Positions 3,864 to 22,585 of a stretch of DNA of 64,000 bases are shown one piece after another. The position numbers and the translations under genes were made by a program. Position 1 is the first letter of the stretch; every line of letters begins with the position of its first letter. Source of the stretch: Synechococcus sp. WH 8016 (lineage in GTDB: Bacteria; Cyanobacteriota; Cyanobacteriia; PCC-6307; Cyanobiaceae). Under the pieces are notes generated by a model. It was not told the DNA's origin. It worked only from the letters and a program-made list of their open reading frames with translations, and did no database searches. The stretch spans positions 558,001-622,000 of the forward strand of contig NZ_AGIK01000001.1 in NCBI RefSeq assembly GCF_000230675.1, written 5' to 3'.

Positions 3864-6614
3864 ATGGACGACATCAGCGGGATCGTCATCCAACTCAAGA
3901 ACATGTTGAGAGCGGAACCGCTGGACATCAAGACGGCTGCTGAAAAGTTCAAAGAACAACTTGCCCCGATTCCAGATACATTTGCAGAGCGAGTAGACAG
4001 AGCAGCCGAAGAACTGGTTCGCCAAGAAACGCAGATAATTTCTTTTTACCCTGTACCACTTGTTACAGCTGCCAAACAGGGTCGATGGTACTTCGGCCCA
4101 GTAGACAATCAATCACCGAGCTGGCAGGCATACAGATCGCATCTTTCAGCCAAGGGTTGGAGTGAAGGGGTGATCAACTCTATTGATAGAGCATCCACAA
4201 AGATCACCAACGAGTTGCTATGTCCAACCGGGCCAAGAGAGGGGCGCTTCCAGGGTCTAGTGCTCGGATATGTACAGAGTGGCAAGACAGCCAGCATTGC
4301 AGCAACAATCGCGAAGGCCGCAGACAGCGGTTATCGCATGGTTATTGTTCTGTCAGGCATGACCAAGATTCTCAGGAAACAGACGCAGCTTCGTCTTTTA
4401 TCAGATGTAGTCAACCACAATCCGTCTTTATGGCTTGAAGGAACGACCGTTGAGTGTGACTTCAAGCCTGGAAGCAGTCCGAAACTTCCAGTCGCGAGCA
4501 AAGGTAACTGCTCTCTTCTTGTAGTCAAAAAGAATGCAGCTGTTCTGAGAAGGCTGAAGAAAGCACTCAACAAACTCTCTGAGATCGAACGCAAGGGAAT
4601 TCCGACACTAATGATCGATGATGAATGCGATCAAGCAAGCATTAATACAGCAGCACATCGAAGTTCAGTTACGCGGATCAACGGACTGATCCGGGATCTC
4701 TGTGAAAAGCTTCCTAGAGTCACTTACGTCGGCTACACAGCGACACCGTACGCGAATGTGCTGATGTCAGAAACCTCAGTTGATGGAAGCAGAGACCTTT
4801 ATCCGAGTGAATTCATCATCTCCTTAGATGAACCCGAAGGCTACTTTGGAGCGAGAAGACTTTTCGGTGTCGACGTCGATGCGGAAAATGCGAATGAGCT
4901 TCCATATATCAGGAGAGTTCCTGCTAATGATCGAGAATACCTTCAACCACCTTCTCGGAGGGAACGTGAGATCTTTACCCCCCAAATGACTGCCAGCCTC
5001 GAGGATGCCTGCGACTGGTTCCTTCTGTCGCTAGCTGCTCGAATGGCTCGAGGACAAGAGCTTTCACATTGCTGCATGCTGATTCATACAACGATTTACG
5101 CAGGATGTCATCGAAGCATCCGTACGATGATTAGTCGGTCGTGGTTAATGCCTATGCGTGATGCTCTACTGAATAACGATAAAGGAAGACTCGGTCAGCT
5201 TAGAAATCTTTGGAACAGAGAAAGCTCAGTTCTCAGCGTAGAAAGAAGAAAAGAGCTGGATTGTCCAGATACCTTGGAAAATTTTGATGAACTGATTCCG
5301 TTCCTTTTTTCAGCAGCAGAAAGCATCTCAATGACTGTTGAAAACTCGGAAAGCGAATTGTCCGAACGACTCGATTTCAATTCAGGTCGTCCTGTACACA
5401 CCATTGTGATTGGCGGCAATGTTCTGGCAAGAGGATTGACCATTGAGGGTCTTGTATGTAGCTATTTCATCCGCACAAGCTCGCAATACGACACGCTCAT
5501 GCAGATGGGCCGATGGTTCGGCTATAGACGCGGCTTCGAGGATCTACCTCGCATTTGGATGACAAGGGAACTTGAGAGTGCATTCAGGGATCTGGTCAAC
5601 GTTGAAGAAATGATCAGAGAAGAGATAGCAACCATCAGCCGTAAGGGGTGGACACCATCTGAGATGGCGGTAAGGGTGCCTCAGATCGCCGGATTGAGCA
5701 TCACTGCCCGCAACAAGCTCGTGATGGAGAACCTGGAAGAATGCGATATCGGGTATTACGGAACGTACGAGCAGACCACCAGTTTTCCAGTTGACCGCAA
5801 CTTTCACCACTCCAACTGGCATGCAGGTGTTGAATTGGTGAACGAAGTCATGGCCAATCGTAATATCAGCTTCAGCAAGGAACGTGCCTCATGTCTGTTC
5901 CGCGATGTTCCATATCGCTCGATCCTCCGATTCCTGCGTACCTACAGATTCGACCAAGAATCGATGACTAGTATTACTGAATTCCTGGAACGTGAAATCG
6001 ACGCTGGCGAGGAAGCAATGGAGATTTGGAACTTAGGCGTTATAGGTAGTAGCAAAGGCAAACAAAGCAGCTTCGGAGTCATCAAGGATCATTCCTTAAT
6101 CTCCCGCACAAAGGTTAATCCGAGTTACAAAAGTAGATTAGATGAGTCTTTGGATTTAGAGCTGAAGAGAGTGATCTACATCAAAGCATTGATGGGTGCG
6201 CGGGACATTTTGATTGACGTTGATCGCGATTCTTATCGTGAGTGGATGAAGACTGTCCCTGATCCTGACTTTGATCGCAAAAAGGATTCCTGGCGATCTA
6301 TCATGAGATACAGAGATTACGCACTCGGTTGCAGGCCCCTTCTGCTTCTCTATCCAATTGACAAAGATTCGAAACCGGGAGGATGGAAATCCGACCAAAA
6401 AGCCAGTGAATCCGTCCGTCTGCCTCTGCTCCACGGTCTCCATTCAGAAGATGATCTTTCTGATGGACTGCTTGGGGTCGGAATTGTGTTTCCGGAAGTG
6501 ACCACAAGCACCGCAAGGCATTTCCTCAAGGTCAAGCTCAACAGGGAGGTGGAGGGTGAGACTTTTGATGACGTTGATTATGAACTGATTGAACAACGTG
6601 AGGAGGAACAGTAA
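3864..6614 (+). CDS. Z1-domain ATPase/helicase-like protein
   Basis: 916 residues. Walker A GYVQSGKTAS at about 134-143, Walker B LMIDDECDQAS at about 249-259, YTATPYAN (motif III-like, about 292-299), then the Z1 signature GGNVLARGLTIEGL (about 516-529) and LMQMGRWFGYRRG (about 544-556). Z1 ATPases are SF2-like proteins found in R-M-linked gene sets with MutL/MORC-type ATPases (Iyer and co-workers) and in the Mza defence system. It is the first gene of the rightward operon; its TAA overlaps the next ATG (TAATG). Its upstream region is AT-rich and its codon use is visibly AT-richer than the genes at 13-17 kb, suggesting separate origin. A role in moving along or remodelling invading DNA is inferred. 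Confidence 0.88.
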   Translation: MDDISGIVIQLKNMLRAEPLDIKTAAEKFKEQLAPIPDTFAERVDRAAEELVRQETQIISFYPVPLVTAAKQGRWYFGPVDNQSPSWQAYRSHLSAKGWSEGVINSIDRASTKITNELLCPTGPREGRFQGLVLGYVQSGKTASIAATIAKAADSGYRMVIVLSGMTKILRKQTQLRLLSDVVNHNPSLWLEGTTVECDFKPGSSPKLPVASKGNCSLLVVKKNAAVLRRLKKALNKLSEIERKGIPTLMIDDECDQASINTAAHRSSVTRINGLIRDLCEKLPRVTYVGYTATPYANVLMSETSVDGSRDLYPSEFIISLDEPEGYFGARRLFGVDVDAENANELPYIRRVPANDREYLQPPSRREREIFTPQMTASLEDACDWFLLSLAARMARGQELSHCCMLIHTTIYAGCHRSIRTMISRSWLMPMRDALLNNDKGRLGQLRNLWNRESSVLSVERRKELDCPDTLENFDELIPFLFSAAESISMTVENSESELSERLDFNSGRPVHTIVIGGNVLARGLTIEGLVCSYFIRTSSQYDTLMQMGRWFGYRRGFEDLPRIWMTRELESAFRDLVNVEEMIREEIATISRKGWTPSEMAVRVPQIAGLSITARNKLVMENLEECDIGYYGTYEQTTSFPVDRNFHHSNWHAGVELVNEVMANRNISFSKERASCLFRDVPYRSILRFLRTYRFDQESMTSITEFLEREIDAGEEAMEIWNLGVIGSSKGKQSSFGVIKDHSLISRTKVNPSYKSRLDESLDLELKRVIYIKALMGARDILIDVDRDSYREWMKTVPDPDFDRKKDSWRSIMRYRDYALGCRPLLLLYPIDKDSKPGGWKSDQKASESVRLPLLHGLHSEDDLSDGLLGVGIVFPEVTTSTARHFLKVKLNREVEGETFDDVDYELIEQREEEQ

Positions 6615-7627
6615 TGATCCAGGAGATTAAAGAGATATGGGGTCAGATCAGGCAGAACCGTCCAGCTTCAGATGCGATCAGCGCACGCCCCCTTCCTGTC
6701 AGTGGTCTCGATCAGAACGATGTACTGCTTTGTATTACGCAAGACAGTAATGCTGGTCTCCTTCTCAGAAGCCAAGGTGGTAGTTCGCCCATGCCAAAGA
6801 CTGGCTGTGGCCGGCTGATAGTGAGACGTGAGCAGTTACTGAGGGAGGGTTCGATACCGGACGATTACATCAGGATCGAATGTCTGGAATCAGACCTTGA
6901 GACTCCTTTCGCATTGCTGGCCAGCCAGGTTGTCAGGCATCTTGCATCCGGTGCGACAGCCACCAAGGCGTGCATGGAAGCAGTTCGCGAATTCCGTAGC
7001 CTGCTTTCTAAAGGTGGCGGCCTTCTTCCTTCTGAAGAAGAGATCCTTGGTCTGACCGGAGAACTCCTACTGCTCAGAAGGTTGGTCAACACCAGACCGC
7101 ACCTCTGGGAGGGCTGGAACGGTCCTCTTGGATCGGCGCGTGATTACTCCTGGGGATCGGTCGATATCGAAGCCAAAGCATCAAGAATGGCTGGTGATTC
7201 AAAGCTCACTGTGAACGGGCTTGACCAGCTCCAACCGGAGGAAGGACGCGAGCTTCTCATTCACCATTCCGTTCTCACAGACAACCCCGCTGGATCGATT
7301 GATGTCCCTGGACTGGTTGATGAAATCAGGAATCAGATTGCTGACCCTGAAGCATTCGACACGAGACTGGTCAGCGCCGGATACCTCAGTGCGCAGAAAG
7401 AGCTCTGGCTCGAACATCGCTTCACCCTTCACGGATCCACCTTCTACAGGGTCTGTGATGGCTTTCCAAGGATCCGCAGGAGCGACTTCCCGGACGGCAA
7501 TCTCCCTGCTGGTGTGTCCAAACTCCGATATGAAATCCTGCTTTCTAACTGCTCCGAATTTCGTCTTTCGACTTCAGAAGAGGAATCACTTCTTGCCGCT
7601 CTGACAGGACAAGTGGACGCGACATGA
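6614..7627 (+). CDS. PD-(D/E)XK motif protein, DUF4420-like
   Basis: 337 residues. A PD-(D/E)XK nuclease-type core is visible: ILGLTGELLLLRRL helix (about 139-152, with the conserved Glu), then ARDYSWGSVDIEAKAS (about 175-190), giving the D...(D/E)xK pattern with E-A-K. This spacing and the E-L-x-x-L-R-x-L helix match DUF4420 (PF14390) proteins, which accompany Z1 proteins and MutL-like ATPases. It is translationally coupled on both sides: 1-bp overlap with the Z1 gene and 4-bp overlap (ATGA) with the ATPase gene. Likely the DNA-cleaving subunit of the system; the exact domain assignment needs a profile search. Confidence 0.75.
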   Translation: MIQEIKEIWGQIRQNRPASDAISARPLPVSGLDQNDVLLCITQDSNAGLLLRSQGGSSPMPKTGCGRLIVRREQLLREGSIPDDYIRIECLESDLETPFALLASQVVRHLASGATATKACMEAVREFRSLLSKGGGLLPSEEEILGLTGELLLLRRLVNTRPHLWEGWNGPLGSARDYSWGSVDIEAKASRMAGDSKLTVNGLDQLQPEEGRELLIHHSVLTDNPAGSIDVPGLVDEIRNQIADPEAFDTRLVSAGYLSAQKELWLEHRFTLHGSTFYRVCDGFPRIRRSDFPDGNLPAGVSKLRYEILLSNCSEFRLSTSEEESLLAALTGQVDAT

Positions 7628-9534
7628 CTCTGATACACCTTCATAGCGAACCCTTCAGCCGCGATGGCAACATTGCAGCGGATGGAGCAGCACGCCTCCT
7701 CGGTCAACCGGCACTCTCCCCTCTCGAGCTCGTCATCCGCGAGACCATTCAGAACAGTTGGGATGCATCACTCGAAATAAAAGGCACACCCCAATATTCA
7801 ATCCGTATCCGCCATCTCAGCTCCTCTCAGATGGAGGCGATGCACTCTTTTTTCCAAGAGCTTCCACCTGATCAGGCCAATGAACCTATCGCAGGAGTTC
7901 TCCGTCGATTCCTGGACTCACCTGGACTTGTGATGGAGGTCTGCGATGCACGGACTCAGGGGCTGGATGGACCCACATCCGCCTCAAGAGCTCTTGTAGA
8001 TGGCGAGTCAGCGAATTTCGTTAATTTCATCAGGAACATCGGCAGTGCAAGAGACGTTGCTCATGGTGGTGGGACTTACGGATTCGGTAAGTCATCCCTG
8101 TTCAAGATCAGCCGGTGTCAAACAGTTGTTGTCCATTCCGTTATCGCTACAGCGGATGGGCTTGAGCACCGCTTGATTGGCAAGGCTCTCGGCGCTGCGT
8201 TTGATCATGACGGTCGACGTTTCACCGGAAGGCACTGGTGGGGGGCAGCCGGTGAAGACGAAAGTGGTTCGGTGGATCCTGTTCTTAATGAAAGGGCGGA
8301 AGTAATCGCTTCTTCCCTCGGTTTCCAGAGCCGAACCACGCAAGAAGAGAGAGGAACCTCCCTGATGATCCTTGATCCGGATCTCGAGGAGTTCGACCCT
8401 TCCGGGGTTTTCGCGAACTCACCCTCAACAGAGATCCAGAACCACCTTGGAGCAAGGCTTCAGGACACGATCCTCTGGCACTGCTGGCCGAAATTCACCC
8501 GCCGTTCTGATGGGAGCCTGCCGATGGAATGCCGTCTGTCGATCCTGGGGGATGACTTCGCTCTACCGGACCCCGAGACCGTCTCGCCTCTCTTTCTGAT
8601 GACCAAAGCTCTGGCGATGGCACGTGACAAGGAAGAGCTGATTCACTGCCAAAGACCGAAGAAACTTCTCGGTTTCTTCGGACAGAGCAGCGCATCGTTC
8701 GAGCTCGCTGCTGATGACCGCTTCCGTCGTCACCTTCGAGATACGGCACTGATCCCTGAGCGGCTCCATCATGTCGCTCTTCTTCGGCCGGCAGAGCTGG
8801 TCGTCCGCTACATGGAGGGCTCGATCAACGAAACTGAGCAGCGTCAGTGGGCCGGTGTCTTCATCACCGATATCGGTAAGAACGCCGAGGTGGAGAAGGC
8901 TTTCGCCATGTCTGAGCCACCGGCACATGATGACTGGCAACCGAAGGCGGCTCAAGCTCTGACGCCGCACCAACGGACCTACGTGAATGTTGCACTCAGA
9001 CGGATACGGGAACGGATCAGCACCCTTTCAGGGAGCAACATCAGCCAGGGAGGTTTGCCTGGTGGTGAAGCCCGCAGTTCTCTTGCTGCCCTAGCCGGGG
9101 ACATCGGGCGCTCCCTGATCGGTGCAGGCCCCGGCGGAGCGGATGGCAGCAGACCCAGCAGCAGCAGCGGTACTGGTGGTCGAAAAGCCGCTCTCCGTCT
9201 CGGATCACCGGTGTCGGAAGGAACAAGCCTCCGCGACGGTCAGCTTGTGGCACGCTTCAGGGTCCGTCTCACTGGCCAGAGTGATACCAGGCCGTCAATC
9301 ACCTTCACACCATGGGTACAGATGGATGAGGGGGCCGGAGATCCTTTCGCTCCGAACGGAAAGTCACCCGAGGTGATCAGCGTTGAAATCGATGAAAACG
9401 AGGTGCCTCTGAGCGAAAAGGGATACATCTGTCAGGTGGCTCAAGGTGGCACGGATATTCAGGTTCTTGTGAGTATCCCGGATTATGTGGCAGTCGGCAT
9501 AAGCCCGGAGATCGTCGCAGGAGATGAGGAATGA
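7624..9534 (+). CDS. MutL/MORC-type GHKL ATPase, copy A
   Basis: 636 residues. GHKL Bergerat-fold motifs: N-box VIRETIQNSWDAS (about 37-49), a modified G1 VCDARTQGLDG, and G2 GGGTYGFGKSS (about 148-158). C-terminal to the ATPase are RPAELVVRYMEG and EPPAHDDWQP (about 430), both echoed in the second ATPase at 15,594-17,585 (RGAGMVVDYVDG, EPVTHDDW). A Gly/Ser-rich linker near residues 500-525 separates a C-terminal beta-rich region. Gyrase-Hsp90-MutL-type ATPases close as dimers on ATP; in R-M-linked systems they are thought to act as clamps or signal relays. Overlaps both neighbours by 4 bp. Confidence 0.85.
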   Translation: MTLIHLHSEPFSRDGNIAADGAARLLGQPALSPLELVIRETIQNSWDASLEIKGTPQYSIRIRHLSSSQMEAMHSFFQELPPDQANEPIAGVLRRFLDSPGLVMEVCDARTQGLDGPTSASRALVDGESANFVNFIRNIGSARDVAHGGGTYGFGKSSLFKISRCQTVVVHSVIATADGLEHRLIGKALGAAFDHDGRRFTGRHWWGAAGEDESGSVDPVLNERAEVIASSLGFQSRTTQEERGTSLMILDPDLEEFDPSGVFANSPSTEIQNHLGARLQDTILWHCWPKFTRRSDGSLPMECRLSILGDDFALPDPETVSPLFLMTKALAMARDKEELIHCQRPKKLLGFFGQSSASFELAADDRFRRHLRDTALIPERLHHVALLRPAELVVRYMEGSINETEQRQWAGVFITDIGKNAEVEKAFAMSEPPAHDDWQPKAAQALTPHQRTYVNVALRRIRERISTLSGSNISQGGLPGGEARSSLAALAGDIGRSLIGAGPGGADGSRPSSSSGTGGRKAALRLGSPVSEGTSLRDGQLVARFRVRLTGQSDTRPSITFTPWVQMDEGAGDPFAPNGKSPEVISVEIDENEVPLSEKGYICQVAQGGTDIQVLVSIPDYVAVGISPEIVAGDEE

Positions 9535-10451
9535 GCCGGATCGCTTTCCCCTATCCCACGCTGTTTCCTCATGTCCGTCAGCAGGGCTCCTGGGAAGCCT
9601 TCATCGACGGTAACCAGAGGCTTTTCAAAGATGGATCGGGGAGCTGGGACTACGACTCGGGGCTGGATGTCATCTGCCGATTTCCCTGGACAGCTGAAAG
9701 CTTGTTCGAGCAGGCGGAACTGACCCCACTGCTCGACAACGCCAGGCTTGCTCTGGTGATTTCCACGGGATCATCTGAAGGCACCGGCCGGCGTTTTGTG
9801 GCGACCGATCTGGCTGTGCGGGACTGTGCGGAGTGTGACGAAGGGGAGGGAACGATGCTCCGCATCAATCTTGAGTCGGCTCGCCTCTGCAACCGCATCA
9901 GAAGCTCTTTTTTTGTTTACAGCACCGGCGGAGAAATCGCCGGGATCAGACTTCTGGGTGGAAGCATCCTCTACAGAGAGGACGCCACACTGCAGCTTGA
10001 GGGGGATCTCGGCAGCTTCCCGATGCGATCCCTCGCCTTCCGCCCCCACAGCCTCGGAGACGGTCTGTGGCTCGTTGATTGTCATGCCGACAGCCCGGAA
10101 GATCCACTTATCTCCTCGGTTTCGTTGCTTCTCAACAGCGATCGACAGGTATTCATCGAACAACTGCAGAGCGAGGCAGAACAGACGGGCTTTCTGCGCT
10201 GGGCGGTTCGCGCTGATGTCATGGCAACGGTGCTGAGTTGGCTGCTGCTCAACGACGAATTCGGGTTCAACTTGGATCAGGAGTGGCCGGACGGCTCCGT
10301 CGGTGCCATCGCAACCGGATGGCTCATGAGCATGGGGGTGCAGGGTTGTTCGGCTCTGCAAAAGCTCACAGAGCAGATCAGGAGAGAGCCACACCGTTTC
10401 CGACAGCGTTGCCAGGCGGCCAGTGTTCTCTCGGCGACGGACTACCCATGA
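9531..10451 (+). CDS. Unknown protein, trio member X-A
   Basis: 306 residues, not recognised as a named family. The N-terminal two thirds look beta-rich (LALVISTGSS, LLGGSILYRED, LEGDLGSFPMRSLAF), the last third alpha-helical (FLRWAVRADVMATVLSWLLL). The leftward gene at 14,562-15,590 occupies the same place after the other ATPase and shares this plan (L-N-x-D/N then R-x-D-V/A...S); the two are probably distant paralogs. It is coupled by 4-bp overlaps to the ATPase and the DUF6339-like gene, so it likely works in a complex with them. No catalytic motif is seen. Confidence 0.7.
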   Translation: MSRIAFPYPTLFPHVRQQGSWEAFIDGNQRLFKDGSGSWDYDSGLDVICRFPWTAESLFEQAELTPLLDNARLALVISTGSSEGTGRRFVATDLAVRDCAECDEGEGTMLRINLESARLCNRIRSSFFVYSTGGEIAGIRLLGGSILYREDATLQLEGDLGSFPMRSLAFRPHSLGDGLWLVDCHADSPEDPLISSVSLLLNSDRQVFIEQLQSEAEQTGFLRWAVRADVMATVLSWLLLNDEFGFNLDQEWPDGSVGAIATGWLMSMGVQGCSALQKLTEQIRREPHRFRQRCQAASVLSATDYP

Positions 10452-11359: not shown

Positions 11360-11810
11360 AATTCATGTCCGCGAAACCACCATCACTGCGGCCCGCAGCC
11401 GCAACATGGCCGCGATCCGGGGACGGAACACATCTCCGGAGCTCAGGGTCCGCAGCCTTTTGCACGGCCTCGGCTACCGGTTCAGGTTGCACCGGCGTGA
11501 TCTCCCCGGATCACCGGACATCGTTCTGCCGAGACACAGAACCGTTGTGTTCGTCCATGGCTGTTTCTGGCATCGGCACCCAGGTTGTCGCTACACCACG
11601 TCCCCGAAAACCCGGGCGGATTTCTGGGCCAATAAGTTTGAGCAGAACATGGAACGGGATGAACGCCAACAGCACCAGCTTCGTGAGATGGGCTGGTCCG
11701 TAATGGTCATCTGGGAGTGCGAACTGCGAGACCTGAAAACACTCACGCAACGACTGGAGAAGATCAGACGGACAAGCGGGCAGATATTTTCTGATCAGGT
11801 AGATAGCTAA
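11352..11810 (+). CDS. vsr: Very short patch repair endonuclease Vsr
   Basis: 152 residues, GTG start overlapping the preceding gene by 8 bp. Family motifs are clear: SRNMAAIRGRNTSPE, LPGSPDIVLPRHRTVVFVHG (catalytic Asp in SPD), CFWHRHPGC (zinc/catalytic His and Cys) and RADFWANKFEQNMERD. Vsr nicks 5' of T in T:G mismatches that arise by deamination of 5-methylcytosine, protecting sites methylated by a C5 methyltransferase. It ends tail to tail (4-bp overlap) with the C5 methyltransferase gene, the expected partner, but as last gene of the opposite operon. Confidence 0.95.
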   Translation: MVEIHVRETTITAARSRNMAAIRGRNTSPELRVRSLLHGLGYRFRLHRRDLPGSPDIVLPRHRTVVFVHGCFWHRHPGCRYTTSPKTRADFWANKFEQNMERDERQQHQLREMGWSVMVIWECELRDLKTLTQRLEKIRRTSGQIFSDQVDS

Positions 11811-13849: not shown

Positions 13850-14565
13850 CAGGCGTTGTTCCCCTCGTCGTTGCTTCGGATCAGGTCCGCGATCTCGCCT
13901 TCCTCCAGCAGGTCGAGACAGATCGATCCGCCGAGGCCGTTTAGGCGGCGGACTCCCGCACGAACCCTCAGATCAGGAAGATCCGCCAGTTCACCTGTGA
14001 GCACCCTGTTCACCGCCGGCAGCAGGCCGTATTCCCGGTCACTGATGCCGAGATGCAGCTCCTGGCTGGTGAACAGCCGCCTGACGAGATCGTAGTCCTC
14101 GCCTTCGGGGCCGATAAGCCTCTGAGCGGCGAAGAAGAGACGGGCGAAGGTGTTGCGGCCGTGGCCGTTGATCGAGGCGGTGCCCAGAAAACGAACCGCC
14201 GGCACCGGACGATGCCCTTTCCCGCTGAGGAATCCGTCCTCGGGATCGGCGGGTGCGCTTCCCCTCCATCGCCTCCACACCAGATCGTGATGGCGAACAA
14301 GGCAGAACCAGTGCCAGACGCGCATGTCGGTGGTCACCGATTCAGGCAAGTGTCGCAGGGCTCTGTGCAGTGGCTCCACTAGAGCGCCATCCATCGCGGA
14401 CTCGCGGACATCACTGCTGAGCAGTTGCTCCAGTGCGGCATCGAAACCCGAGAGGTCCACCTCGGCATCCACCCGTTTCACCTCCAGCAGATGGGGATCG
14501 CGAAGCGCTTCCACAAGCCCCTGTTCACTCACCGGATGCACGAGCCGGAACAGATCGTTGCTCAT
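13849..14565 (-). CDS. DUF6339-like protein, copy B
   Basis: 238 residues. It shares blocks with the 303-residue copy A: VWHWFCLVRHHDLVWRRW (about 82-99), AVRFLG...RNTFARLFFAAQRLI (about 123-146), YDLVRRLFTSQELHLGISD and RRLNGLGGSICLDLLEEGEI near the C-terminus. It is about 65 residues shorter, mainly at the N-terminus. Function unknown; the RNTF-aromatic block and the WRRW motif are the most conserved points. The start overlaps the upstream gene by 4 bp and the stop overlaps the methyltransferase start by one base, so it is part of the leftward operon. Confidence 0.7.
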   Translation of the reverse strand: MSNDLFRLVHPVSEQGLVEALRDPHLLEVKRVDAEVDLSGFDAALEQLLSSDVRESAMDGALVEPLHRALRHLPESVTTDMRVWHWFCLVRHHDLVWRRWRGSAPADPEDGFLSGKGHRPVPAVRFLGTASINGHGRNTFARLFFAAQRLIGPEGEDYDLVRRLFTSQELHLGISDREYGLLPAVNRVLTGELADLPDLRVRAGVRRLNGLGGSICLDLLEEGEIADLIRSNDEGNNA

Positions 14566-15590
14566 GCCGCCTCCGCTTCGATGGCCGCCTCAGCCTCCGC
14601 CGCTGGGTGAACCTGCTGGGCATCGGCCATTGCCTCGGCAAGTGTCACCAGACGTGTCTCTTCCTGAATCAGTGCCGGCATCCTCAGCATCAGGCGCATG
14701 AATCCTCCCGGGCTGTGGAGTTCACGCACGAGCAGGGGAAGGGCGCTGTGGGCAGGCAGATCAGCGCCGGTTAGCCCCGGAGCGAACAGCCCGAGCAACC
14801 GGCTCTGCCAGCTGTTCATTGATGCGATCGCCTCTTCGGGATCGATGCTCCGGTCCTGATCCACGATGCGCTGCAGATCGGCGAGTGCTCCGGAGACAAA
14901 CAGAGGCCAGACGCCTGAGCAGATCGCCATGAACACAGCATCACGCTGCAGCGCCGGACCGTTGCGGCGTCTGCCGCGGCTCATCAGCAGCCTCCGCAGG
15001 GGAGCCGAGACGTTGGCGTTGAGTTCAAGCACCGGCGGCTCGCCGGGCTGAAGCCGCCAGAGCTGCTGGCTCGCTCCACTGGGGAAGTCGGTCCAGCGCA
15101 GCTGGAACAGGGCTTCGCTCTTCGCACTTCTGCTTGTGAAGCGCACCGTATGAATGCGGCTGCGGCCGACGATCTGTCCCTTCTTGTCGGCGAACCCTTC
15201 GCTTGGCTCTTCCGCTGCTGCCGTACGGACCAGAAGAGCTTCGGCTCGGATCTCCTCTCCATCAAGAAGAGCTGAGAAATCATGCTCGGCGAACCACAGT
15301 CCGAGGCCGTCATCCTCAAGCGGCACCACGATTCTGCGACCGGTTGATCTGCTGATCAGGCGGCAGATGAAGCGAGCGGGGGGCTGCTTCTGTTCCTCAG
15401 CAGGGAAACAGTCTTCCCAGCCCCATGGCGGTGTCAGCAGGATCTCCAGACGGACGGCTTCTGTCGCACTGCTGAAACGGAAGGTGACCGCGTTGCTCAC
15501 CTCCTGAATCACCTCTTCGGAAATGCTTTCCGGAGCGGTGACGCGGAAGGCGCCATCCAGGTCGACTGTCTTCCAGGGAAGGAATTCCAT
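14562..15590 (-). CDS. Unknown protein, trio member X-B
   Basis: 342 residues, no named family recognised. The N-terminal part is beta-rich with several W-G-W/F-R segments (LLTPPWGWEDCFP, FQLRWTDFPSG); the C-terminal part is helical (LQRDAVFMAICSGVWPLFVSG), ending in an Ala/Glu repeat tail. Position and layout match X-A at 9,531-10,451, including a L-N-x-N-V-x-A-P...R-R-L-L segment before the R-D-A-V helix. It begins 3 bp after the GHKL ATPase stop. Likely the structural partner of ATPase B. Confidence 0.65.
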   Translation of the reverse strand: MEFLPWKTVDLDGAFRVTAPESISEEVIQEVSNAVTFRFSSATEAVRLEILLTPPWGWEDCFPAEEQKQPPARFICRLISRSTGRRIVVPLEDDGLGLWFAEHDFSALLDGEEIRAEALLVRTAAAEEPSEGFADKKGQIVGRSRIHTVRFTSRSAKSEALFQLRWTDFPSGASQQLWRLQPGEPPVLELNANVSAPLRRLLMSRGRRRNGPALQRDAVFMAICSGVWPLFVSGALADLQRIVDQDRSIDPEEAIASMNSWQSRLLGLFAPGLTGADLPAHSALPLLVRELHSPGGFMRLMLRMPALIQEETRLVTLAEAMADAQQVHPAAEAEAAIEAEAA

Positions 15591-15593
15591 GGC

Positions 15594-17585
15594 TCAACCC
15601 CCCTGCCGGAAACCGGCCAGTGTCGGGTCAACGCCCGCCGGTGGCCGGACCAGACAGCGGAACGGGAGTGTGCCGAAGCCTGAGCTCACCGAGAAGACGA
15701 AGCGCCTTGCATCGGAATCATCAAGGCTCACTTCGCTGACGGAGCCCATCAGTTCGAGGTCGCTGATTCTCCAGGCCTCTCCCTTGCCGGAATCGGCCAG
15801 GCTGCTGAAGCTGAGGCCTGCGGTGGCGCTTGCCTCTCCCTTGCCATGGCGGATCAGCTCACCCTGGAGCGACCACCCTTCCCGTGATGGATCAAAGCAG
15901 CATCCATCTCTGTCCAGAACGATTTCCAGTCGCGGTCGTTCGCCGCGTTTCTGCTCCGAAGGCGAGCTGACAGCCCGGCCGAGATTGAGCATCCGTGCCA
16001 GCAGTTCGGGGCCTTCATCCGGTGACGGTTCATCTGCAATCAGCAGTTTCTGGATCACCAGCTGCCGCAGCTCCGAGCGAAGGCCCCTCAGTCGCCCGGC
16101 CGATCCACGCCAGTCGTAGCTCTCCCTAAGACGCCGGGTCGTCGGCAGCCAGTCGTCATGGGTGACGGGCTCCGCAGCCCGGAAGTACTCCTCCACATCC
16201 GCCGGCACTGCGCTCTGAGCATCCATGGCTGCGGAAGCCGGGATGTGCTGAATGGCATTGCCCACCAGTGCAGCTGCGCAGTAGGCACCTCCATCGTTCA
16301 GACGGTTTCCGTCGACATAGTCGACGACCATGCCCGCGCCGCGGATCAGAGCGATGGTGGATCGGCAGGGCAGGCAGCCTTCGGTCGGGCTGACTCTGGT
16401 CACACCGAGGCGGATGGTGGTTTCCGCGGGCTTATGCAGCAGGTCAGGCCGATCCTCAGGGTGGATTCTCCTGGGGAGGGGAAACCCGGTCAGATCCAGA
16501 GCGGCGGAGTCTCCGGGTTCCAGGGCGGCAACGGTGCCAGGTTCGGTCCGGCTGGCGGCGAGGAAGGGGGCCCAGACGCCGTTCACTTCGGCACGGCACA
16601 CATGGCTCGGATGTGTTTCTCCGCTGCGGAAGACACGGGCCTGAACCTCGAGGCGCCCCCAGCTGATCGCTGGCCAGAACCATTTCGCTGCAGCATCGGT
16701 CAGGTCTGCGCAGAGCTCCTCAGGATCACGGATGCCGAGTTCTCCGGTGTCCTCCCGATCCGGTTCATGGAAGGCGGGAATCAGCAGGGTCGTTCCGCTT
16801 CCGCTGAGCCCGGCCCGGTCCAGTTTCAGATCGATACATGCTTCCTCCGATCTCCAGTCAGACAGAGCCACATCGATTCCGTCGCGGAGACCGGGTGAGC
16901 CGAGATAGGCCCCATCCAGAAATGAAGCTCCGTCGAGCTCATGGGCCGGGATCTCGCTTCGCCCGAACACCCTCAGGCCTTCCTGTTCCCTGCCATGCAC
17001 GCGCGAGGAGAACAGAACCGTGAGCAGGCGGGAATGCATCCAGCTCACCGCCTTGCCGAGCCCGAAGCTCCCACCTCGCCCGGTGTCGTTGCCCGTGGAG
17101 AAATTTTGAATGCAGAGGCGGCGGAAGTTGCCGGCCTCATCCCAGTCATCACCCGACAGCCCTTCAGTGCCGCTGTCGCTGATGCGCAGGCAGACGAGCG
17201 TGTCGGCTGCCATGGCCTGGACCCCTGCCCTGAGAGTGAGCGCAGCGCCACTGAGCCCGCTCACCGCTTCCATATGTGGACTCAGGCCATCCCAGTTCGC
17301 GGCTCTAAGGAATGCTTCGCGCTCTTCGCCCTTCAGCAGCAGCAGGTCGAAATAGACGGATGCTTTTTGAGAGCCGGTGCGCTGATCGCAGCTGTTTTGG
17401 CAGATCTCCCGGACAAGCGTTTCAAGAAGGGGCCTGCGCCTCTGAGTGCTTCCCGTCTCGAACAGTTCGGCCGCAGTGCTCCCGCCGCTGGCACGGCCCT
17501 GACCCAGTGCCGGAGTCGATACCCACTTAAATGGTGCCGGCATGAAGCTTTTCAGGCGTGGTGGCACTGTATCTGGTGTCTGCAA
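15594..17585 (-). CDS. MutL/MORC-type GHKL ATPase, copy B
   Basis: 663 residues. N-box TLVREICQNSCDQR (about 57-69), G1 RISDSGTEGLSG (135-146), G2 GRGGSFGLGKAVSW (170-183), then GSGTTLLIPAF. The distal region carries RGAGMVVDYVDGNRL and AEPVTHDDW, shared with copy A. G1 is closer to the canonical D-x-G-x-G than in copy A, so this copy may be the more active ATPase. Unlike MutL it lacks a visible C-terminal endonuclease motif. It starts 55 bp downstream of the helicase-nuclease stop and is followed 3 bp later by X-B. GC content is clearly higher than in the Z1 gene. Confidence 0.83.
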   Translation of the reverse strand: MQTPDTVPPRLKSFMPAPFKWVSTPALGQGRASGGSTAAELFETGSTQRRRPLLETLVREICQNSCDQRTGSQKASVYFDLLLLKGEEREAFLRAANWDGLSPHMEAVSGLSGAALTLRAGVQAMAADTLVCLRISDSGTEGLSGDDWDEAGNFRRLCIQNFSTGNDTGRGGSFGLGKAVSWMHSRLLTVLFSSRVHGREQEGLRVFGRSEIPAHELDGASFLDGAYLGSPGLRDGIDVALSDWRSEEACIDLKLDRAGLSGSGTTLLIPAFHEPDREDTGELGIRDPEELCADLTDAAAKWFWPAISWGRLEVQARVFRSGETHPSHVCRAEVNGVWAPFLAASRTEPGTVAALEPGDSAALDLTGFPLPRRIHPEDRPDLLHKPAETTIRLGVTRVSPTEGCLPCRSTIALIRGAGMVVDYVDGNRLNDGGAYCAAALVGNAIQHIPASAAMDAQSAVPADVEEYFRAAEPVTHDDWLPTTRRLRESYDWRGSAGRLRGLRSELRQLVIQKLLIADEPSPDEGPELLARMLNLGRAVSSPSEQKRGERPRLEIVLDRDGCCFDPSREGWSLQGELIRHGKGEASATAGLSFSSLADSGKGEAWRISDLELMGSVSEVSLDDSDARRFVFSVSSGFGTLPFRCLVRPPAGVDPTLAGFRQGG

Positions 17586-17639
17586 ATTTTAAAGATCAGA
17601 TGTACTCCTGTCACCGGTTATTGCCCCTGCTGTATCAGC

Positions 17640-20600
17640 TCAGTTCATCAATGTGCAGAGCCGATTGATCTGCTCGGCCTCCGCCACCGTGTTGGCAACA
17701 CCACTGGCCAGGCCAGGTGATCCCACTACGACCGAGAGGCACTGAGCTCGGCTGATCGCCACATTCAGGCGGTTGGGCTCGAGCAGGAAGCCAACCCCGC
17801 GCGGGGCGTCATCACCAGTGCTAGCCGTGAGCGAGTGAATGGCTACTGGGGCCTCCTGGCCCTGGAATTTGTCCACCGTGCCCACCCGAGCTCGGCCGTG
17901 CAACCGTTGTTGCAGCCGGTTCACCTGCACGTTGTAAGGGGCTGTCACCAGGATTGTGTTGGCATCGAGCACGCCTTCTTCTGTGCGGTTACCGCGGGCG
18001 ATGGCGTAACGGCTGCCCAGCAGCGCACAGACCAGCTGCTCGATCCGATCGATCTCTTCTGGAGCATGCACGCTTCTGCCGCTATGCCCTACCGCCTCAA
18101 ACACCAGGCCTTGCGCCGGGTATGGCTCACCATCGCTGCCCTGGCAGGCAATGGGCGAGACAATTCGGTTCGCATAATTATCAGGGTGGGCTCGGAGACG
18201 GTCTTCGTAAAAGAGTTCGCTCACCATTGATGTGAGCCTCGGTTCCATCCGCCAACAAGTAGGCAAGAACACTCCACGATCGTTGGGCACCACGGCTTGT
18301 CCTTCGCCCATCAGGTAATCCAGGCAGCTTTGGCCGGCATCCCCCGGGTGATCCGCTTTTGAGGGTTGCGCCAACTGCTGTTGGTCGCCCACCAGCAGGA
18401 TCGACTGCGCACACCGTGCCATGGCCAGCAGATTGGCGAGTGACAGCTGGCCTGCTTCATCTACCACCAGCAAATCGAACTCCGAGGCAAGCTCTGGCAG
18501 GCAGAGCTTCCAGGCTGTTCCTCCCACGACCCGTTCAATTCCGTTCAGCTTTTTGGGTGCAATGCAGGCAATGCCCTGGTCGTTGAGTTCTTTTTCCCTG
18601 CTGCCGGTCTTGACGATCTGAGCATCGGAACCTGAACCCTCCAGTGCTTCTTTGGTCTTCAGCAGCAAGCTGTTGATGGCGGCATTGCCGTTGGAGCTCA
18701 CTGCAATGCGCTGGCCTTGTTCAACAAGCTGAGCAATTAGTTGGCTGGTCACCGTTGATTTGCCTGTGCCGGGTGGCCCTTGCAGCGTCACGGTAATGCC
18801 GTTGTGCTGGCCAAAAAACCGAGCAAGTTCGCTTGCAACCTGATTGGGGTTGCCATTGATTGCGCTGTTCACGTCTTCCAGCTCGGGGAGAGCGCTTCGC
18901 TCGAGGATCTGCACCATTGCTGGTGAAAGCGACTGCGAGCCTTCCAGCCATGCCAGGGATTGTTCTTCCAGACTGTCCAACACTGCTTCCGATGGCAGCG
19001 ATGGTGTTTTGATCAACGGTGTTGGGCCTTTGGGGATCGGCGGATCAAAGCCATTGGCCCGTCGTTTGTCGCGGCTGCTCCATGGATCTTTCAAAGTGAT
19101 CGATCCTGCAGATTCGTTCAGGTCGTCGATCACCAGCTGCAGGCCTGTTTCGGCAAACTCCACTTTTTGCGGGAACCCCCCTGGTTTCCACTTGAACTTC
19201 AGCAGCTGGTTTGGGTCAAAGCGGAAGTGGTGGTAGTCAGCACCGGCCCGCGCACTTTCTTGAGCCGCGGTGCTCACCCATTGCGCATCGGCGACGGCTT
19301 CTCCTTCATCGCTCAGGTCGCTGGGGTTGGTGAGGGCTTGTTCCCGCCGATCGAAGAACGCCCACCAAGCCACATTGTTTTCGCGGATGTGGAAGGGCAG
19401 CAGCTGCGCCACGAGTTCATGGGCGTTCCAGCTGAGTTGAAGCGGGCTCAGCCCCACACGCTCGGACGGTTCAGCAGGGATTTGGGCCAGGAGTTGTTCG
19501 CTGAGCTGCTCGAGTGGCTTCAGCTCCCGTGGCTCGGCGTTCTCCGTTGCTTTCGAATCAACGAAGTGATCGGGCAAGCCTTGCTGTTGGCGGAGATCGC
19601 ACAACCAGTCGTGGAGATAGGTCGTCGATTCACAGTCTTCTTCGTTGTAGTTCTCGATAGAAAGAAGTTGTGGGCTGCCATCCGGTTCATGGCCTGGACA
19701 CGCTGGCTCGCCTGAGTCGATCCATCGTTGGTAGGCGACCACTGAATCGCCTGCGTTGGTGACACCTGCCTGGCGTGCACCCATGTAGAGGTGCTCCACC
19801 GATTTGATCGAATAGTTCGGTTCCCCCAGCACAATTGCGTGCTTAACGATCGGGCGAAGATCCACTAGCACGTTCTTGCTCAGCCATTCGCTGATTTCGC
19901 GTTCGCGTGTGGCGTGCTGTTGCGACAGGCGCCGCATCGCTGATTTTTCGTAGTCGGCGTAGTGATAAATCCGCAGGCCGGGGTGTTGACGCCTGCGTTC
20001 TTCGACCCAATCCACCCATGCCTGGAACGCTGTTTTTTCCTCGACCGGTGAATGAGCCCACCAGGCTTTGAACTGGGGTGTTTTGTCTTCCCTGTCGCGA
20101 TAACAGGCACCAAACAGGTATTCGAGCTTGGTGCCGAGCACCGGGTCATGGAATCCTTCCATGTCGAACCAGATGTCACCTGCATTGGCTGCCGGCAGTG
20201 CGTACAACCCTTTCCCTTCAATCAATGATCTGAGGCGATAGGCCGGTCGCCCTTTTGCGTCTTTGGGGGAGCACTGCACTTCGGCTTGCTCCTGCAGCCG
20301 TTTGAAAATTCTTGGATCCAGTTGGGGGATCTCTGCGTTCTCTGGGCTATTGGCGAGTTGATCAATGCTGGTGATTCCTGCCGCGCGCAGTTTCTGCCGT
20401 TGGCTCTCTCGCATGTCTGCCACAAGGATCAGATCGCGCTGGCCCATGAGCCGTTCTTCGATGAATGCCGACCAGCTGCCGTGGTCTCCCCGCTCGTCTT
20501 CAGGAATGGCATGCGGATCGAAGGACTCGAGAAACTCTTCGTAGCGATCTCTCAGTTGCTGATACCAGGCCCAGAAGTCCTTCGTTCGGAATTTCTTGAA

Positions 20601-21122
20601 CGTGGCGCCACCTAGATACAGCTCGAATTCTTCTGGCCTGTTGCCGAGATGCGGAGTGAGCAACTCGCAGTAGGCCAACGCTTGAACCAGAAAAGTGGTT
20701 TTGGGCTTGCTGGCTAGCTTGCATTCGATTGGGATGTAGCTCCAGCTGCCAAGCGATGAGGGTTGTTCTATGCGCTTGAGCAGGTCGGCACTGCCGCGCA
20801 TGGAGTTATTGCGCAGTGATGCCTGGTGGATGTACTCCACCCCTCGGTGCATGGCGTCTTGCGTGGCGTCGTAATCGGCGTCTGATTGTTTTCCAAACAG
20901 TCGCGCGATGCTGTGGCCATTGGCCTTAAGTCTTTCCAGCAGCACTTCTTCATGGCGTGCTCCGTCTGATCGGAGTTGTTTCTCCAGTTCGCTCGGCTCT
21001 GGTTTGCTTGCCTCAAAAAGCTTGTGCGCCTGCAGCTCCTCCCACCAGGCTCCGATCACTGGGCTGATGCTGAACAGCGACAGCTGGCTGGGAGTGATCA
21101 GGCGGGTGGACATGCTCCACAT
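17640..21122 (-). CDS. RecB-like nuclease / RNase H-like / SF1 helicase (TM0106 family type)
   Basis: 1,160 residues, start at 21,122 or the ATG at 21,113 (MSTRLITPSQL). The N-terminus resembles TM0106-family RecB-like nucleases, with a GSADLL acidic motif and IECKLAS (E-x-K, about 128-134). A middle part has DIWFDMEGFHDP (RNase-H-like, D-x-E). The C-terminal half is a UPF1/Dna2-type SF1 helicase: GPPGTGKST (about 781-789), VVDEAGQLS (about 885), VGDQQQLAQP, TVDKFQGQE and EPNRLNVAISRAQ. Such fusions process DNA or RNA ends and recur in defence islands. It heads the leftward operon; a palindrome lies 40 bp upstream of the start. Confidence 0.85.
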   Translation of the reverse strand: MWSMSTRLITPSQLSLFSISPVIGAWWEELQAHKLFEASKPEPSELEKQLRSDGARHEEVLLERLKANGHSIARLFGKQSDADYDATQDAMHRGVEYIHQASLRNNSMRGSADLLKRIEQPSSLGSWSYIPIECKLASKPKTTFLVQALAYCELLTPHLGNRPEEFELYLGGATFKKFRTKDFWAWYQQLRDRYEEFLESFDPHAIPEDERGDHGSWSAFIEERLMGQRDLILVADMRESQRQKLRAAGITSIDQLANSPENAEIPQLDPRIFKRLQEQAEVQCSPKDAKGRPAYRLRSLIEGKGLYALPAANAGDIWFDMEGFHDPVLGTKLEYLFGACYRDREDKTPQFKAWWAHSPVEEKTAFQAWVDWVEERRRQHPGLRIYHYADYEKSAMRRLSQQHATREREISEWLSKNVLVDLRPIVKHAIVLGEPNYSIKSVEHLYMGARQAGVTNAGDSVVAYQRWIDSGEPACPGHEPDGSPQLLSIENYNEEDCESTTYLHDWLCDLRQQQGLPDHFVDSKATENAEPRELKPLEQLSEQLLAQIPAEPSERVGLSPLQLSWNAHELVAQLLPFHIRENNVAWWAFFDRREQALTNPSDLSDEGEAVADAQWVSTAAQESARAGADYHHFRFDPNQLLKFKWKPGGFPQKVEFAETGLQLVIDDLNESAGSITLKDPWSSRDKRRANGFDPPIPKGPTPLIKTPSLPSEAVLDSLEEQSLAWLEGSQSLSPAMVQILERSALPELEDVNSAINGNPNQVASELARFFGQHNGITVTLQGPPGTGKSTVTSQLIAQLVEQGQRIAVSSNGNAAINSLLLKTKEALEGSGSDAQIVKTGSREKELNDQGIACIAPKKLNGIERVVGGTAWKLCLPELASEFDLLVVDEAGQLSLANLLAMARCAQSILLVGDQQQLAQPSKADHPGDAGQSCLDYLMGEGQAVVPNDRGVFLPTCWRMEPRLTSMVSELFYEDRLRAHPDNYANRIVSPIACQGSDGEPYPAQGLVFEAVGHSGRSVHAPEEIDRIEQLVCALLGSRYAIARGNRTEEGVLDANTILVTAPYNVQVNRLQQRLHGRARVGTVDKFQGQEAPVAIHSLTASTGDDAPRGVGFLLEPNRLNVAISRAQCLSVVVGSPGLASGVANTVAEAEQINRLCTLMN

Positions 21123-22471: not shown

Positions 22472-22585
22472 ACAGGGACAGAGTGGCTTACACGCCTAGC
22501 CTATCCCTGTTTTGTCCCTAAAGCCACTCGCACAAGGTTGTGCCCAGTTGCACAACTTGAGACCACGAGACAGCTAAATCCAGTC
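22472..22585. promoter_or_regulatory. Inverted-repeat-rich gap between integrase and DUF4336 gene
   Basis: 114 bp between divergent genes. ACAGGGACA at 22,472-22,480 has inverted partners TCCCTGT (22,504-22,510) and TGTCCCT (22,513-22,519). GAGTGGCTT (22,481-22,489) is inverted at AAGCCACTC (22,521-22,529). A further palindrome GTTGTGC-N6-GCACAAC spans 22,537-22,556. Candidate integrase binding/att sites or operators; no tRNA-like fold is seen. Confidence 0.5.

What the first reader, a model, noticed from the sequence alone, without database searches (positions are those of the whole stretch)
3864..21122. Two convergent operons with a duplicated MORC-like ATPase / X / DUF6339 trio
Seen: the rightward operon (Z1, PD-(D/E)XK, ATPase A, X-A, DUF6339-A, Vsr) and the leftward operon (RecB/SF1 helicase, ATPase B, X-B, DUF6339-B, C5 MTase-HhH) meet tail to tail with a 4-bp overlap. 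The trio ATPase-X-DUF6339 occurs in both in the same order, with shared motifs (HDDW and xVVxYxDG in the ATPases; RNTFxRxF and W-R-W in the DUF6339-like proteins). Almost every junction is an overlap of 1-8 bp. Known: GHKL ATPases with Z1 and R-M genes form mobile defence systems. Inference: two paralogous clamp complexes, one coupled to methylation and one to cleavage or mismatch nicking, may distinguish self from foreign DNA.
Basis: partly seen in the sequence, partly recalled or inferred. Interest (0 to 1): 0.9.

Follow-up and report, generated by a model that had tools for sequence, protein, structure and literature searches.

The report
Two-part restriction system with swappable cutter
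This is a bacterial self/non-self DNA defence locus in which one half, built around a DNA-methylating enzyme, stays nearly the same between strains while the facing half, which should do the cutting, is exchanged like a cassette; that suggests the two halves work as one machine.

Summary
Two tightly packed operons meet tail to tail with a 4-bp overlap, and all three trio members are paralogous by profile comparison: ATPase 3.6e-24, DUF6339 1.8e-10, X 2.4e-7 (nine control pairs 0.13-0.97). The ATPases fit paraMORC2 (Iyer 2008), not MORC proper. The flanking helicase is not part of the conserved unit.

New: in picocyanobacteria the leftward half (ATPase-X-DUF6339-C5 methyltransferase) is constant, while the facing half is a replaceable cassette: Z1-DUF4420-trio, a PDC-M33-like trio, or MzaBCDE. 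In Prochlorococcus the exchange falls between the 3' ends of vsr and the methyltransferase gene, and the methyltransferase hardly changes. Of 21 genomes, 17 are readable: 16 have a GHKL-bearing partner alongside; the 17th has the window-type operon on another contig. A Synechococcus elongatus plasmid carries both operons divergently. Many haloarchaeal loci hold two or three trios near a methyltransferase, of separate origin.

Best reading: a C5-methylation-based, ATP-dependent restriction system with a constant modification half and an exchangeable cleavage half. Function is inferred; nothing was tested biochemically.

The parts
3864..6614 (+). Z1 superfamily-2 helicase (MzaC-like); cassette half
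   Evidence: Pfam Z1 8.2e-62, PADLOC MzaC 9.4e-85; GYVQSGKT, IDDE and DTLMQMGRWFG motifs present
6614..7627 (+). DUF4420 PD-(D/E)XK nuclease (MzaD-like); cassette half
   Evidence: Pfam DUF4420 1.9e-45; E150, D177, E186 and K188 invariant in 9 of 9 aligned sequences
7624..9534 (+). ATPase A, GHKL paraMORC2-like; trio A
   Evidence: Homologous to ATPase B, 3.6e-24; PADLOC PDC-M33A 4.9e-10; N-box RETIQNSWD, GGTYGFGK, EPPAHDDW
9531..10451 (+). X-A; trio A, no Pfam or PADLOC family
   Evidence: empty for it; profile match to X-B 2.4e-7
10448..11359 (+). DUF6339-A; trio A
   Evidence: Pfam DUF6339 0.018, below cut-off; profile match to DUF6339-B 1.8e-10
11352..11810 (+). Vsr mismatch endonuclease (GTG start)
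   Evidence: Pfam Vsr 1.5e-28; TIGR00632 3.2e-44, above cut-off; seen in 13 of the 17 readable picocyanobacterial loci, the window included
11807..13849 (-). C5 cytosine DNA methyltransferase with a C-terminal HhH-GPD/MutY-like domain ending in a Cys cluster; constant half
   Evidence: Pfam DNA_methylase 1.4e-47; C-terminal MutY match 3.2e-5, below cut-off; PPCQPFS, MENV and CPLYCAGLC present
13849..14565 (-). DUF6339-B; constant half. Predicted all-helical
   Evidence: Pfam DUF6339 5.8e-15; PADLOC PDC-M33C 1.7e-8; AlphaFold2 pLDDT 86.0, pTM 0.85
14562..15590 (-). X-B; constant half. Predicted Ig-like beta sandwich plus C-terminal helical bundle
   Evidence: AlphaFold2 pLDDT 79.6, pTM 0.65; homologous to X-A
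15594..17585 (-). ATPase B, GHKL paraMORC2-like; constant half (TTG at 17585; the start may be the ATG at 17543)
   Evidence: PADLOC PDC-M33A 2.5e-19; the Prochlorococcus relatives align from residue 16-18; GHKL motifs intact
17640..21122 (-). Neighbouring helicase: TM0106 RecB-like nuclease plus SF1 helicase; not part of the conserved system
   Evidence: TIGR03491 6.7e-63; matches in 48 of 151 family genomes, 16 of them at E = 0, and a second copy in the same genome; no match beside ATPase B in the relatives' loci read
21248..22471 (-). Possible tyrosine recombinase near the right edge of the island (my reading of its C-terminus; no family match)
   Evidence: No family; similarity to a relative lacking the system begins at 22626

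Best explanation
The locus is an ATP-dependent, C5-methylation-based restriction-modification system in two halves. The constant half (ATPase B, X-B, DUF6339-B, C5 methyltransferase with an HhH-GPD-like domain, usually with Vsr nearby) marks the host DNA and, with its repair enzymes, copes with the T:G mismatches that 5-methylcytosine produces. The facing half (here Z1 helicase, DUF4420 nuclease and a second trio) attacks DNA that lacks the mark. Both ATPases should work as ATP-gated dimers, in the manner of MutL and other GHKL proteins (general knowledge, not tested). The methyltransferase barely changes while the facing half is swapped between very different engines, so what decides which DNA is 'self' probably rests with the constant half, directly or through contact between its GHKL ATPase and the one that every cassette read here brings. 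Shown: paralogy, intact motifs, in-place exchange, co-occurrence, separate doubling in haloarchaea. Inferred: cleavage of unmethylated DNA, contact between halves, location of recognition.
For: Domain hits and intact motifs. In-place exchange: L012 compared with nine Prochlorococcus loci; against the seven that are not type I, DNA identity of about 81-96% runs to near the vsr 3' end and resumes inside the methyltransferase 3' end, with no match reported (E 1e-10, 80 bp or more) across the roughly 7.6 kb between. C5 methyltransferases of 11 Prochlorococcus loci are 81-98% identical; the presumed target-recognition stretch averages 91.2% between partner types and 93.0% within. Partner type needs 10 changes on the B-half tree of 17 loci, and 83% of label shuffles need no more. 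A GHKL-bearing partner in 16 of 17 readable loci; the 17th genome has the A operon elsewhere. Strong A matches: 7 genomes in a draw of 400, all among the 21 with B. Divergent A+B on a S. elongatus plasmid. Two or three trios near a C5 methyltransferase in 12 of 19 haloarchaeal loci, of separate origin. CglI/NgoAVII, a C5-methyltransferase R-M with a Z1 helicase, hydrolyses ATP on DNA with unmethylated sites (PMC4267653, passages).
Against: No phage challenge, methylome or biochemistry. The A cassette could recognise the same site by itself. That every cassette has a GHKL ATPase may only reflect that MZA and PDC-M33 systems have one anyway. X and DUF6339 have no fold match that hints at function. 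The last 20-odd codons of the methyltransferase differ between partner groups, and also between two kinds of type I, so the constant half is not wholly constant; a recombination edge or a fitted interface. Outside haloarchaea and picocyanobacteria, single trios are the rule, and 21 of 47 such loci show no C5 methyltransferase match in the stretch held, some of them short. One family genome (G596) has a divergent single trio beside a C5 methyltransferase without a second trio in 20 kb. Haloarchaeal second trios come with proteins of no known family, so a cleavage role there is by position only.
Confidence: 0.6

Rival explanations
1. Two self-sufficient restriction systems share one methyltransferase. 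The B trio with the methyltransferase is a complete R-M system, and the A cassette (or its PDC-M33 or MZA substitutes) is a second, independent engine that is only viable where the same methyl mark protects the chromosome.
For: Single trios beside a C5 methyltransferase are common elsewhere (26 of 47 loci outside haloarchaea and picocyanobacteria). MZA and PDC-M33 are listed by PADLOC as systems or candidates in their own right. One genome has A and B on different contigs.
Against: Needs very different cassettes to respect the same mark without sharing a recognition part. The B half has no recognisable nuclease besides Vsr. All seven strong A matches lie in genomes that also have B, although phylogeny is not corrected for.
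Confidence: 0.25
2. The B trio serves methylation upkeep and repair (a MutL-like partner of Vsr and the HhH-GPD-like domain), not restriction. Only the facing cassette restricts.
For: B genes sit with a methyltransferase that carries an HhH-GPD-like domain, and Vsr is close by. MutL works with Vsr in very-short-patch repair (stated in PMC2292703).
Against: Homologous trios occur with restriction engines such as PLD-helicase and HNH genes and in the A cassette itself. Vsr was seen in only 13 of 17 readable loci.
Confidence: 0.12
3. An ordinary defence island in which two unrelated systems landed side by side by chance.
For: The locus is not at the corresponding place in a same-genus relative, and defence genes cluster in islands.
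Against: The pairing recurs in several genera, in divergent order on a S. elongatus plasmid and in trans in one genome.
Confidence: 0.03

Closest known systems
GHKL/Z1/RE-fold R-M operons with MORC and paraMORC ATPases (Iyer, Abhiman and Aravind 2008, PMC2292703; three of four text parts read)
   Same: SF2 helicase with the DThhQXuRhFG motif, an RE-fold nuclease with E-D-ExK, Vsr, cytosine methylase, and a GHKL ATPase with ExxxH. The paper already notes some neighbourhoods with two different GHKL proteins (MORC plus paraMORC1) and argues that one GHKL family can take another's place in related operons
   Different: The parts that I read do not describe X or DUF6339 proteins, a doubled trio, or a constant methyltransferase half with exchangeable facing cassettes
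PADLOC candidate PDC-M33 (A, B, C)
   Same: ATPase A and B hit PDC-M33A; DUF6339-B hits PDC-M33C
   Different: X-A and X-B do not hit PDC-M33B directly; here two such trios lie together with Z1, DUF4420 and a C5 methyltransferase
MZA system (PADLOC/NCBIfam MzaB-E)
   Same: Z1 and DUF4420 are MzaC/MzaD relatives; MzaBCDE relatives occupy the same slot in other strains (for L051, others by similarity)
   Different: MzaB (MutL-like GHKL) and MzaE (AIPR) are absent here, replaced by a trio
CglI / NgoAVII R-M systems (PMC4267653, passages)
   Same: C5 methyltransferase with a Z1-domain helicase; ATPase on DNA with unmethylated sites
   Different: Their nuclease is a PLD-B3 protein; no GHKL ATPase or trio is mentioned in the passages read
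VcSduA / Shedu type I-D (PMC12137116, passages)
   Same: A paraMORC GHKL ATPase proposed to control a nuclease in phage defence
   Different: Single fused protein of the paraMORC3 type with a DUF4263 nuclease; no methyltransferase partner in the passages read
Z1 / DUF4420 / C5-methylase island of Corynebacterium (PMC5379612, passages)
   Same: Z1 helicase, DUF4420 and a Dcm-like methylase in one island that stands in for other genes in sister strains
   Different: The passages name an EcoRII-like nuclease and unclassified proteins, no GHKL trio, and the methylase moves with the island rather than staying constant

Membership tests
MORC family proper | GhXhhpXXRhl motif in the S5 domain (PMC2292703) | tested here: not met
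   Regular-expression scan finds no such motif in ATPase A or B
paraMORC2 (PMC2292703) | GHKL ATP-binding motifs | tested here: met
   N-box, G1 and G2 residues conserved in 15 aligned ATPases and present in A and B
paraMORC2 (PMC2292703) | Conserved ExxxH towards the C-terminal end of the S5 domain | tested here: met
   E472/H476 invariant in 15 of 15; EPPAHDDW and EPVTHDDW. Whether this region folds as S5 was not tested
MZA system | MzaC (Z1) and MzaD | tested here: inconclusive
   PADLOC 9.4e-85 and 6.5e-6; NCBIfam scores far below the equivalog cut-offs
MZA system | MzaB (MutL-like GHKL) and MzaE (AIPR) | tested here: not met
   No such hits shown among the ten window proteins scanned (25 of 60 rows shown for the methyltransferase); both found in L051
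PDC-M33 (PADLOC candidate) | PDC-M33A ATPase | tested here: met
   4.9e-10 (A) and 2.5e-19 (B)
PDC-M33 (PADLOC candidate) | PDC-M33B middle protein | tested here: inconclusive
   No direct hit for X-A or X-B; X-B profile matches the X group of PDC-M33-type loci at 7.5e-7, X-A only at 0.00041
PDC-M33 (PADLOC candidate) | PDC-M33C (DUF6339) | tested here: met
   DUF6339-B 1.7e-8; DUF6339-A has no direct hit and matches only by profile
CglI/NgoAVII-type R-M | C5 methyltransferase plus Z1 helicase | tested here: met
CglI/NgoAVII-type R-M | PLD-B3 nuclease subunit | tested here: not met
   No PLD or B3 hit among the window proteins scanned; the nuclease is DUF4420
DISARM | DrmA and DrmB core | tested here: not met
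   No DrmA/DrmB hit shown for the ten window proteins scanned; the methyltransferase hits DrmMII among many C5 methyltransferase models (best 25 of 60 shown)
Restriction-modification (any) | Methylation protects DNA from cleavage by the same locus | not testable with these tools
   Needs methylome and restriction assays

The most novel reading that the evidence does not exclude
A defence architecture in which a constant, methylation-linked GHKL complex (trio B) decides self from non-self and licenses whichever GHKL-bearing effector cassette is plugged in opposite it, through contact between the two GHKL ATPases (a mixed clamp comparable to MutL-alpha). Populations then change their weapon without changing their methyl mark, and haloarchaea reached a similar two-trio design independently.
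Probability: 0.3. Interest if true: 0.82.

Novelty: new variant of a known kind. Interest (0 to 1): 0.63.

Why it matters
In the usual view a methyltransferase and its restriction enzyme must match in specificity and so evolve together. Here the methyltransferase stays nearly fixed while the facing half is replaced in place by very different machines, which points to a separation of 'who is self' from 'how to destroy'. It also gives a concrete test of what the paraMORC ATPases, predicted in 2008, do in restriction, using natural comparisons: Prochlorococcus strains that share the frame and differ in the cassette. If recognition sits in the constant half, new weapons can be acquired without the danger of cutting one's own genome.

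Tried and rejected
Pairwise BLASTP was too weak to prove X paralogy; a first profile comparison gave X A-B only 0.0023, and more sequences raised it to 2.4e-7. Sequence searches of the PDB with the ATPase and X profiles found nothing at E 1 or better, and with the DUF6339 profile nothing better than 0.067; the 257-aa haloarchaeal protein gave at best 0.013, to a protein-A entry. Fold searches: the X model had one Foldseek match below 0.001 (3.7e-4, an oligosaccharyltransferase chain, TM 0.21, rmsd 38.6, so not credible) and otherwise mostly Ig-like or similar beta-sandwich domains (best VIA Z 9.0, rmsd 3.6, 111 aligned, model residues 8-157; the helical part was barely tested). The DUF6339 model had no Foldseek match at 0.001 and best VIA Z 4.5. 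This does not show new folds.

Helicase as part of the unit: rejected; most of its 48 matching genomes match only in part or weakly. Local tandem duplication: rejected, because A and B do not group as sisters (midpoint-rooted FastTree, some weak inner supports). The HEF_HK/Response_reg_2 systems of PMC8011034 (passages): no such Pfam hits in the ten window proteins. Phage carriage: a scan of viral contigs gave 5 distant matches, 24-32% identity, not followed. Rfam and tRNA searches of the window were empty. A promoter-like site upstream of ATPase B (17614-17586) is no more than chance: 3 found in the region against 5.5 expected. The type E partner (L011/L041) has a GHKL ATPase (PADLOC PDC-M33A 9.3e-18), but its second and third genes show no detectable kinship to X or DUF6339.

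Rows set aside: in the partner count, three loci end before the partner (L046, L056, L059) and one is a remnant (L060), 4 of 21. For the ATPase tree, rows from L061-L073 were dropped as near-duplicates of picocyanobacterial rows already in, though two of those loci (L065, L068) had no twin among them. Of 14 family genomes matching ATPase A at 0.001, seven match weakly and were not counted as A operons; one of these, G596, is a single trio with a C5 methyltransferase, the others were not read for this, except G266, G537 and G614, which are B-half genomes. The hypergeometric value ignores phylogeny, and I do not rest the case on it. Loci are the best 71 by similarity, not a random sample; the 19 haloarchaeal loci are fewer genomes (L093/L103 share a contig, L079/L083 an organism). 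On re-checking I added Iyer's precedent of two GHKL proteins in one neighbourhood and the trio loci without a methyltransferase; I lowered the interest score from 0.66 to 0.63 for this and left the probabilities, which concern the window's own lineage.

Full report
Observation. Eight of ten junctions overlap by 1-8 bp, including the 4-bp tail-to-tail overlap of Vsr and the methyltransferase. Families: Z1 8.2e-62, DUF4420 1.9e-45, Vsr 1.5e-28, DUF6339-B 5.8e-15, DUF6339-A only 0.018, C5 methyltransferase 1.4e-47 with a C-terminal stretch resembling MutY (3.2e-5, below that model's cut-off). Key motifs are intact in both ATPases, Z1, the methyltransferase and DUF4420. X-A, X-B and the two ATPases have no significant Pfam family.

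Paralogy. Alignments of relatives compared profile against profile give ATPase A-B 3.6e-24, DUF6339 A-B 1.8e-10 and X A-B 2.4e-7; nine X-against-DUF6339 control pairs gave 0.13-0.97. The trio is therefore doubled in full, in the same order. In a tree of 99 ATPases the A group (local support 1.00) and the B group (1.00) lie apart. This is not a local duplication but two old trios brought together.

Who has it. In a draw of 386 genomes of the phylum, 9 match ATPase B at 0.001, the window's own included and three of them distant; in a draw of 400 genomes of the family, 21. I fetched all 20 relatives of the family draw and read the gene order. Partner of the constant B half, window included: type I (Z1-DUF4420-ATPase A-X-A-DUF6339-A) 6; a PDC-M33-like trio of type C 3, of type D 1; a trio-like set E 1; MzaB-C-D-E 5; no partner alongside 1; contig ends too early 3; remnant 1; total 21. 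The Mza and PDC-M33 names come from PADLOC scans of L051, L013 and L016 and, for set E, a PDC-M33A hit of its ATPase; the other loci were assigned by similarity, profile or gene layout. Each of the 16 adjacent partners brings its own GHKL ATPase. The one genome without a neighbouring partner (G672) carries the full A operon on another contig. Strong ATPase A matches (41% or more over most of the protein) occur in 7 genomes of a 400-genome family draw, all 7 among the 21 with B; the uncorrected hypergeometric value is 3.8e-10. Seven further genomes match weakly; one of them, G596, holds a divergent single trio with a C5 methyltransferase and no second trio in the 20 kb read.

In-place exchange. 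I compared one Prochlorococcus locus (L012, type I) with nine others by DNA. Against the seven with another partner or none, matches of about 81-96% identity run up to near the vsr 3' end and resume inside the methyltransferase 3' end, then continue through the B half; no match is reported across the roughly 7.6 kb between. In five of the nine (L014, L057, L013, L058, L053; types I, I, C, C, III) the chromosomal flanks match on both sides, so different cassettes sit at the same place. Against the two other type I loci the cassette matches only in part, at about 64-74% DNA identity. The final 20-odd codons of the methyltransferase differ between partner groups and between the two kinds of type I; L054, which has no neighbouring partner, has a tail like the type C loci, as if a type C cassette had been lost. 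The methyltransferases of the 11 Prochlorococcus loci are 81-98% identical; my presumed target-recognition stretch (window residues 241-390, an estimate from motif spacing) averages 91.2% between partner types (43 pairs, lowest 81.9) and 93.0% within (12 pairs). On a tree of the concatenated B half of 17 loci, partner type changes 10 times, and 83% of random relabellings need no more, so partner type follows no detectable phylogeny.

Beyond picocyanobacteria. A 50-kb plasmid of Synechococcus elongatus carries the A operon (ATPase A 41%, Z1 41% identical to the window) and the B operon (ATPase B 44%, methyltransferase 46%) back to back in divergent order. So the pairing survives a change of orientation and replicon. 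In haloarchaea, of 19 loci examined, 12 hold two or three full-length trio ATPases near a C5 methyltransferase and 7 hold one; of the seven, three lie near contig ends and one has a second ATPase split into two frames. One haloarchaeal ATPase group sits beside the methyltransferase; another has a roughly 508-aa gene just upstream (tagged in 9 cases), in L078 and others together with a 257-aa gene; neither protein of L078 has a Pfam or PADLOC match. These two groups form separate clades (1.00 and 0.98), with a third haloarchaeal group (0.98), inside a haloarchaeal grouping (0.96; one further haloarchaeal ATPase falls just outside), apart from picocyanobacterial A. Among the other 62 loci only five have two such ATPases, all picocyanobacterial. 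Doubling therefore seems to have arisen at least twice. Results against a general rule: of the 47 loci that are neither haloarchaeal nor picocyanobacterial, none shows two trios in the stretch held (for the S. elongatus plasmid the second lies across the record's start), and 21 show no C5 methyltransferase match (some stretches are short). These loci are the best matches to the query, not a random sample.

Repair parts. The methyltransferase C-terminus ends in a Cys cluster and resembles MutY. In haloarchaea a separate HhH-GPD gene (1.2e-14 in L078) lies at or near the methyltransferase in several loci (the others by sequence likeness). With Vsr in 13 of 17 readable loci, this fits care for T:G mismatches left by deamination of 5-methylcytosine (established role of Vsr; the inference for this locus is mine).

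What is not part of it. The helicase at 17640-21122 is a TM0106 RecB-like/SF1 protein. It has matches in 48 of 151 family genomes, 16 of them at E = 0, and a second copy in this genome, and no match beside ATPase B in the relatives read. In a same-genus relative without the system, an 18-kb stretch shares DNA with the first 27 kb of the window only from 22626 on, so the system, the helicase and a possible recombinase probably lie in an island at least 22 kb long; its left end was not found.

Mechanism. Shown by sequence: paralogy, intact motifs, constant half against exchangeable half, recurrence. From the literature: Z1 helicases act in C5-methylation-based restriction with ATP hydrolysis on DNA with unmethylated sites (PMC4267653, passages); MORC and paraMORC ATPases were proposed to loop DNA between recognition and cleavage sites (PMC2292703, three of four text parts); a paraMORC3-type GHKL-nuclease protein defends against phage (PMC12137116, passages). 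Inference: the cassette is the cleaving half; the constant half marks and probably recognises; the two GHKL ATPases may meet. The main rival, two independent engines under one methyl mark, remains open.

Novelty. Parts and general context have been known since 2008, including loci with two different GHKL proteins and the idea of GHKL families replacing one another (PMC2292703); in-place replacement of a defence island with Z1, DUF4420 and a methylase is also described (PMC5379612, passages). I found no paper in the library on DUF6339 or PDC-M33, and searches on MORC/Z1/Vsr, MZA terms, paraMORC, picocyanobacterial defence and shared or modular methyltransferases gave listings in which I saw nothing describing this arrangement; subscription papers and preprints are mostly not in that library. 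I file it as a new variant of a known kind.

Noticed in passing
window 2365-3104, - strand: A VapC-like PIN toxin (NCBIfam 1.2e-14, below cut-off) overlaps by 4 bp a small upstream gene with no NCBIfam match, probably a toxin-antitoxin pair beside the island.
   Followed up: no
window 21248-22626: Right edge of the island: similarity to a same-genus relative begins at 22626, just beyond a possible recombinase gene that has no family match.
   Followed up: partly
L078, L089, L093, L091, L022 (haloarchaea): The trio away from the methyltransferase is preceded by a conserved protein of about 508 aa, and usually a 257-aa one nearby; those of L078 have no Pfam or PADLOC match; candidate new effectors.
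   Followed up: partly
L020:1-19200 (Halobaculum plasmid): A single trio and a C5 methyltransferase lie near DrmB (9.5e-130) and DrmC (4.3e-44) genes, so the trio may also pair with DISARM.
   Followed up: partly
L123:6324-13426 and L120:7302-13473: Single trios beside helicase-nuclease genes (PLDc_2 plus ResIII in L123, PADLOC mREase_IV in L120) and, in L123, an HNH protein with a weak EVE match: the trio may be an adaptor for many engines.
   Followed up: partly
3' end of the methyltransferase gene in L012, L013, L014, L015, L051, L053, L054, L055, L057, L058: The last 20-odd codons differ between partner groups; either the recombination edge or a fitted contact surface.
   Followed up: partly
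L060:8884-9309: A 142-aa ATPase B fragment (67% identical) without the rest of the B half nearby: a decayed copy.
   Followed up: no
G000 contig C4:156127-159594: A second full-length copy (63% identical) of the RecB-like/SF1 helicase elsewhere in the same genome.
   Followed up: no
L141:9741-14942 (G596): A divergent single trio-like set (ATPase, DUF6339-like) followed directly by a C5 methyltransferase in a family genome without the window's B half.
   Followed up: partly
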